From the NCBI GenBank assembly GCA_009995705.1, contig JAADBR010000180.1:1-7892 (forward strand): a stretch of DNA of 7,892 nt, read 5' to 3'. A model generated the notes under the pieces. The model was not told the origin of the DNA, made no database searches, and worked only from the letters and a program-made list of their open reading frames with translations. Origin of the DNA: Microcystis aeruginosa W13-11. Its GTDB lineage: Bacteria; Cyanobacteriota; Cyanobacteriia; Cyanobacteriales; Microcystaceae. The translations under genes were made by a program, and so were the position numbers. Of this stretch, positions 4,625 through 7,892 are shown in pieces. Positions within the stretch are counted from its first letter, which is position 1. Every line of letters begins with the position of its first letter.

Positions 4625-5071
4625 ATGCTAGGTGTTCATCAATTAAAACAACTCTATGAGATTGATGACTCTCAATGGCTAGGAGAAACCGTTAGCCTAC
4701 TCAGAAATCATCAATTTTCACAACTAGACTTAGAACATTTAATCGAGGAATTAGAGGATTTGAGCAAAGAAAAGAAAAATGCGGTAGCCAGTCCTTTAGA
4801 ACAGGTTATCCGCCATTTATTATTACTGCAATACTGGACAAAGGAAGCAGAATATAATGTAATTAATTGGCAGGAATAAATTTATAACTTCCGTACTCAA
4901 TTAGGGCAAAAAATGACGACCAATCTCCGCAATTATTTAGAAGAATAATTAAACTTTATATATCAAGATGCGTTAGGTTTTGTCAAAATCAAAACAGTGA
5001 ATACTGTGATTTTTCCTTCTCAATGTCCTTACTCACTAGAACAATGACTGAAGCGCTCTTGGTTGCCATAA
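4625..5071 (+). pseudogene. DUF29 family gene interrupted by three in-frame stops
   Basis: The first 84 codons, ending at a TAA at 4877-4879, give a clear DUF29 N-terminal half: YEIDDSQWLGETVSLLR, then LDLEHLIEELEDL, then an LLLLQYW helix. Continuing in the same frame past the stop reads IYNFRTQLGQKMTTNLRNYL, a second TAA (4946-4948), LNFIYQDALGFVKIKT, FPSQCPYSLEQ, a TGA (5045-5047), and LKRSWLP before the final TAA at 5069. The total of about 148 codons matches usual DUF29 length, and FPxQCPYSLEQ...WLP is a familiar DUF29 C-terminus. The gene therefore carries three nonsense codons and no frameshift. A GGAG at 4611-4614 supports the ATG. Only an 84-residue N-terminal fragment could be made now. 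DUF29 function is unknown. Confidence 0.8.
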
Positions 5072-5140: not shown

Positions 5141-5976
5141 TGAAAACCGATAAAATCTTTTATACCCTATTTCAAGTCTTTCCCGAACTTCTCTTTCAAC
5201 TGCTAGGAGAATCTCCCAATCTGGCGCAAAATTATCAATTTAAATCAATCGAAATCAAAGAATTGGCTTTCCGACTCGATGGGGTATTTATTCCCGATGC
5301 AGACCACCCAGATTATCCGCTTTACTTTGTCGAAGTTCAATTTCAAAAAGACGAGGATTTTTATTGGCGATTCATCACTCAGATCTTCCTCTATCTCAAG
5401 CAGTATAAGCCGGAACGCGCCTGCTGTCCCGTGATTCTGTGGGGAAAGCGCCGCTTGGACATTGGGTTTCCCATCGCTTACCAAAATTTGCTAAACTTAG
5501 AGCGGATACAACAAATATATCTCGATGAAATCGAGGCTGAATCTCCTCCCTCTCTGGGGATAAGTATCCTCCAGTTTATCGTCATCAGTGGGAAAAAAGC
5601 ACCCGAACAGGTTCAATCCTTGATTGAGCAAACCCGCCAACAGATTATTGACCCTAACACTCAACGAAATGTTATCGAGTTAATCGAGAAGATTATTATC
5701 TACAAATTTCCCCAGAAAAGTCGCCAGGAGTTAGAAGCTATGTTTAATCTCACGGAATGGAAACAAACCAAGTTTTATCAAGAAGCTAAGGAAGAGGGGA
5801 AACTTGAAGGAAAACTTGAAGGAAAACTTGAAGGAAAACTTGAAGGAAAACTTGAAGGTAAATTGGAAACAATTCCTCTTCTGGTTAGGTTGGGACTTAA
5901 TGAAGAACAAATTGCACGGGAATTAAATCTAAGAGTTGAGATTGTTCATCAATTTATTACCAATCAGAACAATTAA
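5140..5976 (+). CDS. Rpn family (DUF2887) recombination-promoting nuclease / putative transposase
   Basis: The protein is 278 residues. Members of this family have a PD-(D/E)XK nuclease fold, and relatives in E. coli (RpnA-E) stimulate RecA-independent recombination. MKTDKIFYTLFQVFPELLFQ at the start is the DUF2887 hallmark. The active-site pattern is LDGVF (Asp47) followed by YFVEVQFQ (Glu65, Gln67). Residues 220-243 are six GKLE repeats, a charged linker typical of the family but variable in length. Residues 246-272 (LVRLGLNEEQIARELNL and on) look like a small helical, HTH-like tail. No Shine-Dalgarno is visible, and the start overlaps the stop of a tiny ORF. The reading frame is intact. 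DNA cutting in vivo is inferred from the family. Confidence 0.88.
   Translation: MKTDKIFYTLFQVFPELLFQLLGESPNLAQNYQFKSIEIKELAFRLDGVFIPDADHPDYPLYFVEVQFQKDEDFYWRFITQIFLYLKQYKPERACCPVILWGKRRLDIGFPIAYQNLLNLERIQQIYLDEIEAESPPSLGISILQFIVISGKKAPEQVQSLIEQTRQQIIDPNTQRNVIELIEKIIIYKFPQKSRQELEAMFNLTEWKQTKFYQEAKEEGKLEGKLEGKLEGKLEGKLEGKLETIPLLVRLGLNEEQIARELNLRVEIVHQFITNQNN
5797..5868 (+). repeat. 12-bp tandem repeat inside the Rpn gene (six GKLE units)
   Basis: Six head-to-tail 12-base units encode Gly-Lys-Leu-Glu. The middle four (5809-5856) are identical GGAAAACTTGAA. The first has GGG for Gly, and the last has GGT and TTG, all synonymous. Because the unit is a multiple of three, slippage would change linker length without breaking the frame. 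Confidence 0.93.
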
Positions 5977-6222: not shown

Positions 6223-6251
6223 TTGACTTGGATTGACAGTTTTGCCATACT
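6223..6251 (+). promoter_or_regulatory. Sigma-70-type promoter ahead of the small peptide ORF and brnTA
   Basis: TTGACT (6223-6228) and CATACT (6246-6251) are separated by 17 bases, a good -35/-10 pair about 40 bases before the ATG at 6292. ACTGT/ACAGT half-sites at 6219-6223, 6236-6240 and 6249-6253 overlap it and could be an operator. Since brnTA operons are normally repressed by BrnA, this may have been the brnTA promoter, but that is an inference. Confidence 0.5.
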
Positions 6252-6291: not shown

Positions 6292-6393
6292 ATGAGAACC
6301 AGGAAACTGACACCCCGTCACTCTGCTCCCGTCCAACGGGAAAATACCGCTACCGTCTCTCGTGATGGCAATGCGATCGCCCATAACAATTAA
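6292..6393 (+). CDS. 33-residue peptide resembling an anacyclamide/piricyclamide-type cyanobactin leader
   Basis: Cyanobactins are ribosomally made, cyclised peptides cut from a short precursor whose leader recruits the processing proteases. This ORF starts MRTRKLTPRHSAPVQRE. By recall, leaders of the anacyclamide/piricyclamide class read roughly M-T/K-K-K-N-L-x-P-Q-Q-x-APVQRE, so Leu6, Pro8 and Ala12 to Glu17 fall at the same places. After the leader comes TVSRDGNAIA (with a HIP1 site in the DNA) and a stop after HNN. No plausible core with a following AGDD-type cleavage signal is seen, so it is likely a truncated or orphan precursor. It has a promoter 40 bases upstream, a weak AGGG at 6277-6280, and brnT 18 bases downstream. 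No modifying enzymes are in the window. The similarity could be chance, given the short length. Confidence 0.45.
   Translation: MRTRKLTPRHSAPVQRENTATVSRDGNAIAHNN
6373..6380. repeat. HIP1 palindrome GCGATCGC
   Basis: This is the highly iterated palindrome of cyanobacterial genomes. It lies inside the small peptide ORF, coding part of its Ala-Ile-Ala. It supports a cyanobacterial origin. Confidence 0.85.
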
Positions 6394-6484
6394 TTTTGCT
6401 ATCGTTTATCTATGAAATTTGAATGGGACGAGAGCAAAAACCAAAGTAACCTTATCAAACATGGATTTGACTTTGCAGATGCCT

Positions 6485-6492
6485 ATCGTATC
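6485..6492. repeat. Left copy of the 8-bp target-site duplication (ATCGTATC)
   Basis: ATCGTATC directly precedes the left end of the MITE and is repeated exactly at 6670-6677. The flanking bases differ on both outer sides, so the duplication is exactly eight bases. Confidence 0.9.
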
Positions 6493-6669
6493 GTAAGGAT
6501 TCAGGTCATACAAAAAGCAGTCAACCCCTTGCTGTGTAAGCATTTAGGGGAATTATGGACAAATGCTCATTCTCATTAAGAAACGCTGAAAGCCTTAATT
6601 TTCGGTTTAGCGAGTTCTGAGATTTTAGAAGCCGCTCTGTGACTGCATTTGAGACACCTGAATCCTTAC
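6493..6669. mobile_element. 177-bp MITE with 14-bp perfect TIRs, IS66-like ends
   Basis: The left end is GTAAGGATTCAGGT (6493-6506). The right end, ACCTGAATCCTTAC (6656-6669), is its exact reverse complement. An 8-bp direct repeat flanks the element. Ends beginning GTAA and 8-bp duplications are hallmarks of the IS66 family, so an IS66-type transposase probably moved it. The element has no transposase. A subterminal copy of the end (GTAAGCATTTAGGGG, 6536-6550) matches the left end at 11 of 15 bases. A short open stretch from about 6583 to a TGA at 6640 may be a leftover C-terminus of an IS gene. Confidence 0.88.
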
Positions 6670-6884
6670 ATCGTATCTTTAACCTACCTATGGTTGTTGA
6701 CTTGGATGAGCGAGAGAATTATGGAGAAGATCGCTTTGTTGCTATTGGTTTACTAGATGGACGAGTTGTCGTTATTGTCTATACTGAACCTGACGCTGAA
6801 ATAATTCGTATTGTATCTTTAAGAAAAGCATTATCTTATGAACGAAAATATTATGAGCAATATCTCAAAAACAGATTGGAATAG
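6639..6884 (+). CDS. Possible N-terminally altered BrnT expressed from a GTG in the MITE
   Basis: After the insertion, the surviving BrnT body can be read from a GTG at 6639 inside the MITE. This would give 81 residues in which about 12 MITE-encoded residues (MTAFETPESLHR) replace the first 27 of BrnT. The normal N-terminal strand and helix with FEWD, Lys9 and KHG are lost, so toxin activity is doubtful. No convincing Shine-Dalgarno precedes the GTG. It may simply be a leftover frame, but gene callers will report it. It overlaps brnA. Confidence 0.45.
   Translation: MTAFETPESLHRIFNLPMVVDLDERENYGEDRFVAIGLLDGRVVVIVYTEPDAEIIRIVSLRKALSYERKYYEQYLKNRLE
6670..6677. repeat. Right copy of the 8-bp target-site duplication (ATCGTATC)
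   Basis: This is the exact repeat of 6485-6492, directly after the right end of the MITE. It marks where the brnT reading frame resumes. Confidence 0.9.
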
Positions 6885-7131
6885 AATTGATGAAATGAAA
6901 GATGAGGATATTGACACTTCTGATATTCCTCCTCTATCAGAGGATTTTTGGGCTAAAGCACAACTGCGAATGCCTAATCCTTCTGTTACTGTAGAAGTTG
7001 AAGTCGATCCAGAAACTTTTGCCTGGTTTCAGGCCCAAGGAGGAACGGCACAACAACAAATGTCTGTCGCATTGAAAATTTATGCCCAAGCAAATAAGGC
7101 TTGTTCCTCGTCTACAACTACTAATCGCTAA
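6853..7131 (+). CDS. brnA: BrnA family antitoxin
   Basis: BrnA binds BrnT and represses the operon through a C-terminal ribbon-helix-helix domain. I prefer the ATG at 6853 (92 residues, starting MSNISKTDWNRIDEM), because the family starts close to the S-K-T-D-W-x-R-x-D motif. An in-frame ATG at 6838 would add five residues. Conserved parts are DEDIDTSDIPPLSEDFW (residues 18-33, DNA-free linker that wraps the toxin) and VTVEVEVDPETFAWFQAQGG (45-64), followed by the QQQMSVALKIYAQA helix. The gene overlaps the end of brnT, the usual brnTA arrangement. The last ten residues (ACSSSTTTNR) look unlike the family and abut a transposase relic, so the original end may have been replaced. With brnT broken, this is effectively an orphan antitoxin. 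Confidence 0.85.
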   Translation: MSNISKTDWNRIDEMKDEDIDTSDIPPLSEDFWAKAQLRMPNPSVTVEVEVDPETFAWFQAQGGTAQQQMSVALKIYAQANKACSSSTTTNR

Positions 7132-7231: not shown

Positions 7232-7624
7232 ATGACTCGAATTACTATTGATTTACCAGTCAGTTTAGCTGAAACCGCCCAATGTTTAGGGAAGGCTACG
7301 GAACGAGAGTTATCAGAGGTTTTAATTGATACCTTAGAAATTGTTCTACCTACCTTTAATAGTCTCTCAGCAGTGGGTAATCATGTTGAAATTTCCCATC
7401 TGTTAGATGCTGAAGTGATTGAATTAGCTAATTCAAAAATGGATGTTGTTCAAAATCAACGCTTGGGAGAGTTACAAGCTAAGGGAAAAAATACTGGTTT
7501 AACCGAAGCTGAAGGCTATGAATTATTAGTTTTAATCTCAATTTACCAAATGGGACAAATAAGAAAGTCAATCGCCTTAGCTGAAGCCGTTAAAAGAGGC
7601 TTGAGAAATCCTTTAATGCCATGA
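7232..7624 (+). CDS. Hypothetical antitoxin-like protein paired with an HNH-type gene
   Basis: This 130-residue soluble protein starts MTRITIDLPVSLAETAQCLG, a pattern seen in short DNA-binding or antitoxin-like proteins. It then has a helical middle and a C-terminal segment TEAEGYELLVLISIYQMGQI followed by RKSIALAEAVKRGL. Cyanobacterial genomes often carry this type of small protein directly before an HNH endonuclease (from memory), and here its TGA overlaps the next ATG (ATGA), implying translational coupling. No Shine-Dalgarno precedes the ATG. The upstream stretch contains GTAAG (7204-7208) and CTTAC (7214-7218), a small inverted repeat that could be an operator. I do not recognise a named family, and an antitoxin role is inferred from context. 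Confidence 0.65.
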   Translation: MTRITIDLPVSLAETAQCLGKATERELSEVLIDTLEIVLPTFNSLSAVGNHVEISHLLDAEVIELANSKMDVVQNQRLGELQAKGKNTGLTEAEGYELLVLISIYQMGQIRKSIALAEAVKRGLRNPLMP

Positions 7625-7892
7625 GCTTTCTCACAGAGCCTTTACGCCAAAAAGTTAGACAACGGGCAGGAAATCGCTGTGAATATTGCCTCAGTCATCA
7701 ACAAGCTTTTGATGTTGAGCCGATTTATCCTCTGGGGCTGTTTAAAGATTTTGTTATGGAAGTTGAAGGCGATTGTAATATTGAAGCCTCCTGTAAGATA
7801 GAATTAGATAAACTCATTGCCTCACGGTTTATGCTCTTTTTTAAAGATCAGTCCCAAGAATGGCAAAAATGTCTAACTCAATCTTTAGCTTT
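7621..7892 (+). CDS. HNH-type N-terminus, partial gene running off the window
   Basis: The reading frame starts at an ATG overlapping the upstream stop and stays open to the window edge (about 90 codons). MSFLTEPLRQKVRQRAGNRC followed by EYCLSHQ is the standard start of cyanobacterial HNH endonucleases, with Cys20 and Cys23 of the first zinc knuckle. From residue 30 it departs from the family. FDVEPIYPLG stands where a DHI-P-GG catalytic segment would be expected, so the catalytic His is missing, and the following text (FKDFVMEVEG, then KIELDKLIASRFMLFFKD) is unfamiliar. It could be a fusion of an HNH start with another protein, a deletion product, or a divergent family. The 3' end is not visible. 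Confidence 0.6.
   Translation, partial: MSFLTEPLRQKVRQRAGNRCEYCLSHQQAFDVEPIYPLGLFKDFVMEVEGDCNIEASCKIELDKLIASRFMLFFKDQSQEWQKCLTQSLA

What the first reader, a model, noticed from the sequence alone, without database searches (positions are those of the whole stretch)
6412..6884. Exact MITE footprint inside a brnT toxin gene
A 177-bp element with perfect 14-bp terminal inverted repeats (6493-6506, 6656-6669) and an exact 8-bp duplication (ATCGTATC at 6485-6492 and 6670-6677) splits brnT. Removing the element and one repeat copy restores a 95-residue BrnT in frame. Perfect ends and otherwise undamaged coding sequence suggest a recent insertion that disarmed a toxin while leaving brnA intact.
Basis: seen in the sequence. 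Interest (0 to 1): 0.75.

Follow-up and report, generated by a model that had tools for sequence, protein, structure and literature searches.

The report
Jumping DNA split a bacterial toxin
In DNA that most resembles the bloom-forming cyanobacterium Microcystis, a 177-base element that carries no transposase gene sits inside the brnT toxin gene and cuts its reading frame in two, so the toxin is predicted to be dead while its antitoxin gene is still open; uninterrupted relatives exist and the same element family occurs in other cyanobacteria, so this is likely a clean case of a known process.

Summary
The element at 6493-6669 has perfect 14-bp ends and an exact 8-bp duplication; 0 of 1000 simulated windows held such a pair. 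Uninterrupted brnT genes exist: with the flanks searched apart, 6 of 7 distinct loci share just one copy of the 8 bases, and a 95-residue database protein is identical to both pieces. Other copies have the same ends: 26 copies from the order are 200-202 bp, 14 of 26 with an exact 8-bp duplication. The window copy lacks 24 bp that relatives have. An IS66 transposon with identical 14-bp ends and an 8-bp duplication makes it an IS66-type MITE. The toxin is predicted dead: each fragment lacks 12 of 24 invariant residues. brnA is open; its expression is untested. Two additions: the element's tail is fused to other gene fragments, one from a ParE-type toxin, and brnTA sits in a piricyclamide (cyanobactin) locus in Microcystis and Planktothrix. 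Two further Microcystis brnT genes are broken by other lesions. Ordinary mechanism, good example.

The parts
6493..6669 (+). IS66-type MITE, 177 bp, no transposase gene; a copy 24 bp shorter than its 201-bp relatives
6493..6506 (+). left terminal inverted repeat GTAAGGATTCAGGT
   Evidence: the same 14 bases end an IS66-family transposon in L103
6656..6669 (+). right terminal inverted repeat ACCTGAATCCTTAC
6485..6492 (+). target duplication, first copy (ATCGTATC)
   Evidence: single copy in natural uninterrupted relatives
6670..6677 (+). target duplication, second copy (ATCGTATC)
6412..6492 (+). 5' piece of brnT (27 codons); frame runs on into the element and stops at 6577-6579
6678..6884 (+). 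3' piece of brnT (68 codons and stop), in another frame from the 5' piece
6639..6884 (+). 81-aa open frame from a GTG inside the element into the 3' brnT piece; predicted non-functional
   Evidence: lacks 12 of 24 positions invariant in 25 natural BrnT
6853..7131 (+). brnA antitoxin gene, open (92 aa from the conserved ATG at 6853; 97 aa if read from 6838), overlapping the end of brnT
   Evidence: this Met is present in 7 of 7 relatives compared, the upstream one in 4 of 7; PF14384 17.9 bits, below its cut-off 26.1
6292..6393 (+). truncated piricyclamide-type (cyanobactin) precursor gene pirE: leader only, no core peptide
   Evidence: TIGR04446, 54 bits, cut-off 35, positions 1-31 of 51
6223..6251 (+). 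promoter-like site (TTGACT, 17 nt, CATACT with TG) upstream of the pirE remnant and brnT
   Evidence: 3 such sites found in the region against 2.8 expected, so weak
7621..7892 (+). start of a PirF-type peptide prenyltransferase gene, cut by the window end
   Evidence: TIGR04445 positions 2-71 of 282, 93 bits (below the whole-protein cut-off of 140, as expected for a fragment)

Best explanation
A 177-bp element without a transposase gene, with matched 14-bp ends and an exact 8-bp duplication, lies inside brnT; it was likely put there by an IS66-family transposase acting in trans, and the toxin is predicted to be inactive. Shown: anatomy, natural empty sites, relatives with the same ends and duplications, an IS66 transposon with identical ends, an open brnA frame. 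Inferred: that an IS66 transposase recognised the GTAAGGATTCAGGT ends, cut an 8-bp staggered target and left the duplication on repair; that translation of brnT now stops in the element (6577-6579), leaving two fragments each without half of the invariant residues; that cells tolerate this because BrnA without BrnT is harmless. Untested: whether brnA is still translated, since its start lies inside the 3' end of brnT and may have depended on ribosomes finishing brnT.
For: Perfect ends and duplication, not expected by chance. Empty site: flank pieces searched apart share exactly the 8 bases in 6 of 7 distinct loci; N and C pieces adjoin in one frame in 11 of 14 loci. P0002 (95 aa) is identical to both pieces. 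A 201-bp relative in another Microcystis genome has an exact duplication GTTTTGAT. Of 26 copies with both ends, 14 have 8 of 8 matching flank bases and 17 at least 7; with ends taken straight from the alignment and no choice, 8 of 15 and 11 of 15; left flank of one copy against right flank of another, same choice of ends, 0 of 648 exact and 3 of 648 at least 7. L103:3119-4665 has the same 14-bp ends, an exact AGTAATTA duplication and a 497-aa IS66 transposase (PF03050 142 bits; NF033517 306 bits). The element tail (VRIQVIQKAV...) is fused to gene fragments in 7 further database proteins. Structure model of natural P0002 (pLDDT 93.8): the break after residue 27 falls at the end of helix 21-28.
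Against: The window's own genome is not held, so copies and a transposase in the same cell could not be sought. Among 12 Microcystis genomes the IS66 copies with ends like the element's have broken transposase frames, and of the 4 with both ends 0 show an 8-bp duplication; G013 holds two unbroken 524-aa IS66 frames, but no end like the element's was found in the stretches fetched around them (L280, L287). So no working partner was found in the genus. 9 of 26 copies of the family lack a good duplication. N-terminally shortened 81-residue BrnT alleles are common (15 of the 62 sequences printed), so a shortened BrnT need not be dead by that fact alone. No expression or toxicity was measured.
Confidence: 0.9

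Rival explanations
1. The insertion is real but the toxin is not dead: the GTG at 6639 inside the element starts an 81-residue BrnT with a new N-terminus, so the element swaps the start of the protein.
For: The frame 6639-6884 is open and keeps 68 BrnT residues; 81-residue BrnT forms with another start are widespread (P0009 71 contigs, P0010 20, P0041 34).
Against: It lacks 12 of 24 invariant positions, among them W5, D6, K9, N10, N13, K16, H17, and strand 2-5, helix 7-17 and nearly all of helix 21-28 of the model. The other 81-residue forms keep residues 18-27, this one does not.
Confidence: 0.06
2. The element belongs to another transposon family with 8-bp duplications (for example that of the ISL3-type 187-nt MITE of Microcystis) and the IS66 ends are a coincidence.
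For: The 187-nt Microcystis MITE also makes 8-bp duplications (PMC11448079, section 21). The Microcystis IS66 copies with like ends show no duplication (0 of 4).
Against: That MITE's ends begin GGCTCTTCG; this one begins GTAAGGATTCAGGT, identical over 14 bases to both ends of an IS66 transposon with its own 8-bp duplication, and over 16 bases to the left end of Microcystis IS66 copies.
Confidence: 0.04
3. Assembly artefact or chimera in the contig.
For: Either junction protein was listed only from this 7892-bp contig; the window's genome is not held.
Against: An artefact would not be expected to make an exact 8-bp duplication with perfect ends; the same element tail is fused to other genes elsewhere, including in a named Microcystis genome (P0159).
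Confidence: 0.02

Closest known systems
IS66 family (transposon L103:3119-4665, NCBIfam NF033517)
   Same: Identical 14-bp ends beginning GTAA and an 8-bp target duplication. That GTAA ends and 8-bp duplications typify IS66 is recalled.
   Different: The element has no transposase and no significant similarity to it beyond the ends.
187-nt ISL3-type MITE of Microcystis aeruginosa PCC 7806 (PMC11448079, passages and section 21 read)
   Same: Short element without a transposase gene, 8-bp duplications, hairpin, inserts in some Microcystis genes; reported as often lying between toxin-antitoxin genes and transposable elements.
   Different: Different ends (GGCTCTTCG) and a different likely partner transposase.
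95-bp MITE in a pirE gene of strain SYKE 864 (PMC3428304, sections 7 and 8 and passages read)
   Same: MITE insertion in the piricyclamide locus.
   Different: Length differs; its sequence was not seen, so kinship is open; the target there is a precursor gene.
MITEs of Anabaena sp. 90 (PMC3542288, passages read)
   Same: Cyanobacterial MITEs, 15 of 147 in disrupted genes.
   Different: Sequences not seen; called type II there because no insertion sequence of that genome shares their ends.
BrnT/BrnA toxin-antitoxin (PDB 3u97; the 2012 Brucella paper is known to me only as a reference and from recall: not held)
   Same: Natural relative P0002 aligns with 3u97 over residues 1-84 and better with 7vd7 over 1-87; toxin gene first, antitoxin gene overlapping its end.
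   Different: Here the toxin gene is interrupted.

Membership tests
[quoted passage not shown]
   14 of 14 complementary
[quoted passage not shown]
   8 of 8 bases; single copy in natural relatives
[quoted passage not shown]
   177 bp; no Pfam match of its first frame; that frame has a stop before codon 57 in every copy printed except L185
[quoted passage not shown]
   matches in 38 of 388 genomes of the order; 26 of 33 loci examined have both ends; copies in the window's own genome could not be counted
[quoted passage not shown]
   L103:3119-4665, identical ends, 8-bp duplication, IS66 transposase; not shown in the window's own cell, and no working one found in 12 Microcystis genomes
IS66 family member (autonomous) | DDE_Tnp_IS66 transposase gene | tested here: not met
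   no such gene in the element; filed as an IS66-type MITE, not as an IS66 insertion sequence
IS66 family member (autonomous) | ends 5'-GTAA and 8-bp duplication (recalled definition) | tested here: met
BrnT toxin (PF04365) | whole domain in one reading frame | tested here: not met
   two frames, profile positions 1-24 and 18-77; a broken brnT
BrnA antitoxin (PF14384) | score over the family cut-off | tested here: not met
   17.9 bits, cut-off 26.1; named by its place and by relatives beside intact brnT
piricyclamide-type cyanobactin precursor (TIGR04446) | leader, core and follower | tested here: not met
   leader only (positions 1-31 of 51): a remnant

The most novel reading that the evidence does not exclude
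brnTA is a lodger of the piricyclamide locus that works as an addiction module holding that cyanobactin cluster in the chromosome, and mobile elements and deletions repeatedly disarm its toxin while the antitoxin is kept, so that the cluster is set free to decay, as the coreless pirE beside the split brnT suggests. The 201-bp IS66-type MITE family is an old, length-fixed agent of this in cyanobacteria that also split a ParE-type toxin.
Probability: 0.1. Interest if true: 0.65.

Novelty: new member of a known kind. Interest (0 to 1): 0.38.

Why it matters
It is a clean natural interruption of a toxin gene by a mobile element with empty-site alleles in close relatives, usable to test whether an antitoxin gene is kept after its toxin is lost. 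It adds an IS66-type MITE family of near-constant length (200-202 bp in 26 copies) across the order of Microcystis, which I did not find in the held papers (no paper with Microcystis, MITE and IS66; none with the end sequence; none with six terms joining MITE, IS66 and toxin-antitoxin; most subscription papers are not held), and it shows toxin-antitoxin genes housed in the piricyclamide locus.

Tried and rejected
A hidden protein in the element: the first frame is open for 57 codons in the G014 copy and the length is constant, but every other copy printed has a stop before that; rejected. A conserved RNA: the whole element folds well (z -6.15), the part between the ends gives z -2.27 and the first 141 nt z -0.29, the consensus fold of 25 copies holds only 12 end pairs, 1 with changes on both sides, and Rfam gave no match inside the elements searched; rejected. 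A promoter or terminator in the element: site counts close to shuffles. Plasmid or phage carriage: no match (the L103 transposon against phages); the element's left 32 bases were not in viral contigs. Defence system: no PADLOC match. The 74-residue BrnT alleles starting MNPYP (P0003, P0051) look like another insertion of an element end at almost the same codon, but their DNA could not be reached; left open. Toxin preference of the MITE: of 7 further fused proteins one host fragment is ParE-like, one DUF29, one a repeat matched in 12 of 12 Microcystis genomes, and the others had no Pfam name (P0122 and P0142 share one host fragment); too few for a claim.

Rows dropped or not looked at: of 52 match rows (at most 2 candidates scored per genome, so copy numbers are lower bounds; 388 genomes drawn from a larger order) 33 loci were examined; 26 had both ends recognisable, L161, L187, L188, L273 and L276 lacked a clear left end, and L186 and L196 are cut by contig ends. 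In one search the ends were chosen within 15 bases of the projected place to favour a duplication; the test without choice and a crossed control are. L264 was left out of the alignment as a duplicate of L265. One search was given 13 of the 40 loci plus L164. One search printed 62 of 120 listed proteins. The 25 proteins were my choice of full-length ones.

Full report
Observation. The window holds a 177-bp element at 6493-6669 with 14-bp perfect inverted ends and an exact 8-bp direct repeat ATCGTATC on both sides. This is the only exact inverted pair of that size within 600 bp in the window; of 1000 simulated windows with the same dinucleotide steps, 36 had such a pair and none had it flanked by an identical 8-mer. 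It divides brnT: PF04365 matches the 5' frame (27.2 bits, under the cut-off of 34.5, profile 1-24) and the 3' frame (50.6 bits, profile 18-77) separately, and the two lie in different frames.

Empty site. The window's genome is not held, so I used relatives, with the flank pieces kept apart. A scan of one genome for each of 84,980 species with the 3' piece gave 40 loci. For 11 locus ids (7 distinct places) the left and right pieces were aligned separately: in 6 of 7 (L001, L002, L003, L025, L029, L164) the left match ends and the right match begins with exactly the 8 bases in common, that is one copy and no element; in the seventh (L028) the left piece ends at the same point but sequence next to it is deleted. 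At protein level the N piece ends at residue 27 and the C piece begins at the next codon in one frame, whole, in 11 of 14 loci; L025, L028 and L029 are broken in other ways. Database protein P0002 (95 aa, two contigs) is identical to both pieces. The two junction proteins of the window (55 aa and 81 aa) were listed only from the 7892-bp contig (best 120 of 239 hits listed, 63 hits).

The element. In Microcystis genome G014 a copy of 201 bp, 83% identical with a 24-bp gap, has an exact duplication GTTTTGAT; two partial copies in G009 match the window over 119 of 119 and 118 of 119 aligned bases but also hold the 24 bp. So the window copy is a shortened version of a 201-bp element; whether it was shortened before or after landing is open. 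Across the order of Microcystis (Cyanobacteriales by recall), 38 of 388 genomes have a match. I examined 33 of the 52 match rows: 26 have both ends, with lengths 200, 201 or 202. Of these 26, 14 have identical 8-bp flanks and 17 at least 7 of 8; since the ends had been chosen to favour this, the test was repeated with ends straight from the alignment: 8 of 15 exact, 11 of 15 at least 7; and crossed flanks of different copies with the same choice gave 0 of 648 exact and 3 of 648 at least 7 (an offset control gave 0 of 1014). An internal inverted motif ATTCTCAATAA / TTATTGAGAAT is kept at 9 or more of 11 positions in 19 of 25 copies, best offset taken and no control run; the 24 bp missing from the window copy contain one arm. 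The interior is neither coding nor, by these tests, a conserved RNA.

The transposase. This is a complete transposon with an exact AGTAATTA duplication and a 497-aa IS66 transposase; its host is unknown to me. In 12 Microcystis genomes, IS66 transposase matches occur in 7. Copies with similar ends share the first 16 bases with the element but have broken transposase frames and a right end with two changes, and of the 4 with both ends 0 show the duplication. Two unbroken 524-aa IS66 frames in G013 have no such ends in the fetched stretches. So the family is IS66-type; the working partner in Microcystis was not found.

Activity. The element's first frame encodes a tail VRIQVIQKAVNPLLCKHLGELWTNAHSH before its stop. 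The tail, exact in five and with one or more changes in P0122 and P0142, is fused to seven other database proteins: P0122, P0123, P0124, P0125, P0142, P0159 and P0160, P0159 from a named Microcystis aeruginosa genome. The host part of P0123 matches a gene in L301 whose product is a ParE_toxin (47.8 bits); that of P0160 is DUF29; that of P0124 is matched in 12 of 12 Microcystis genomes and looks like an insertion-sequence gene (recalled). The DNA of these proteins was not seen.

Effect on the toxin and antitoxin. In 25 natural BrnT proteins that I chose, 24 columns are invariant, 12 on each side of the break. The model of natural P0002 (mean pLDDT 93.8) places the break at the end of helix 21-28, so the 3' frame lacks the first strand and nearly all of the first two helices. 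Loss of toxicity is therefore predicted, not shown. brnA is open and without stops here and in 7 of 7 relatives compared, including three with a damaged brnT (L025, L028, L029). The Met at 6853 is the likely start: present in 7 of 7, while the upstream Met is present in 4 of 7. It lies inside the end of brnT, so coupling to brnT translation is possible; the stop at 6577-6579 would break it.

Recurrence. Among the Microcystis brnTA loci read here (window, L001, L003, L164, L028, L029) three of six have a damaged brnT, each by a different lesion: the MITE, a deletion, and loss of the 5' end with a further deletion. Fifteen of the first 62 database proteins printed are 81-residue forms reading SQGFDF after the first residue, and two are 74-residue forms starting MNPYP. 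That antitoxins can outlive toxins is known in general (recalled).

Surroundings. The 33-aa frame just upstream of brnT is the leader of a piricyclamide-type precursor without core (TIGR04446, 54 bits), and the gene at the window's end begins a LynF/TruF/PatF-type prenyltransferase. The Uma2 genes of the window recur beside pir genes in Microcystis. pirE-like sequences lie near brnTA in L001, L002, L003, L028 and L029, the Microcystis and Planktothrix loci, and were found in none of the other 35 loci at E 1e-4 within the 3-12 kb held (L030 had a weak protease match and L025 a Uma2 match). In G014 the locus also holds a pirE leader and a PatA-type protease. Several ParE- or YafQ-type toxins are neighbours in L310 and L312. 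A paper search for cyanobactin, toxin-antitoxin and gene cluster listed five, none about this by title or start of abstract (listing only). PMC3428304 (sections 7 and 8) describes interruptions, short hypothetical proteins and a 95-bp MITE in this locus.

Judgement. The finding is real and correctly read. The mechanism is a known kind: a small transposon-like element landing in a gene. Added here are the family assignment, its near-constant length across the order, and the cyanobactin locus as the setting. Interest is modest.

Noticed in passing
window 6292-6393 and 7621-7892; L001, L002, L003, L028, L029, L310: brnTA lies in a piricyclamide (cyanobactin) locus: pirE leader remnant upstream, PirF-type prenyltransferase downstream; pirE-like sequence also near brnTA in five Microcystis and Planktothrix loci but found in none of its other 35.
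   Followed up: partly
window 7621-7700: The prenyltransferase gene starts with about 25 residues (RQRAGNRCEYC) unlike the start of the same gene in L029 and resembling an HNH nuclease (recalled), so its 5' end looks chimeric.
   Followed up: no
L228, L229, L230, L231: Microcystis IS66 copies with ends like the MITE's: of 4 with both ends, 0 show an 8-bp duplication, unlike the MITE and L103.
   Followed up: partly
P0003, P0051 (database proteins): 74-residue BrnT alleles starting MNPYPIFN could be read from an element end ...ATGAATCCTTAC next to brnT at nearly the same codon, a possible second insertion; P0051 stands for 90 contigs.
   Followed up: partly
26 copies, alignment A1: The element family keeps a length of 200-202 bp at about 69-88% identity to the G014 copy, with an internal inverted motif, without coding or RNA-fold signal; reason for the fixed length unknown.
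   Followed up: partly
window 4625-4879: DUF29-type gene ends early at an in-frame stop compared with the database relative P0160, in which the same MITE tail is fused.
   Followed up: no
window 5782-5877: Tandem 12-bp units (GAAGGAAAACTT) inside the DUF2887 gene.
   Followed up: no
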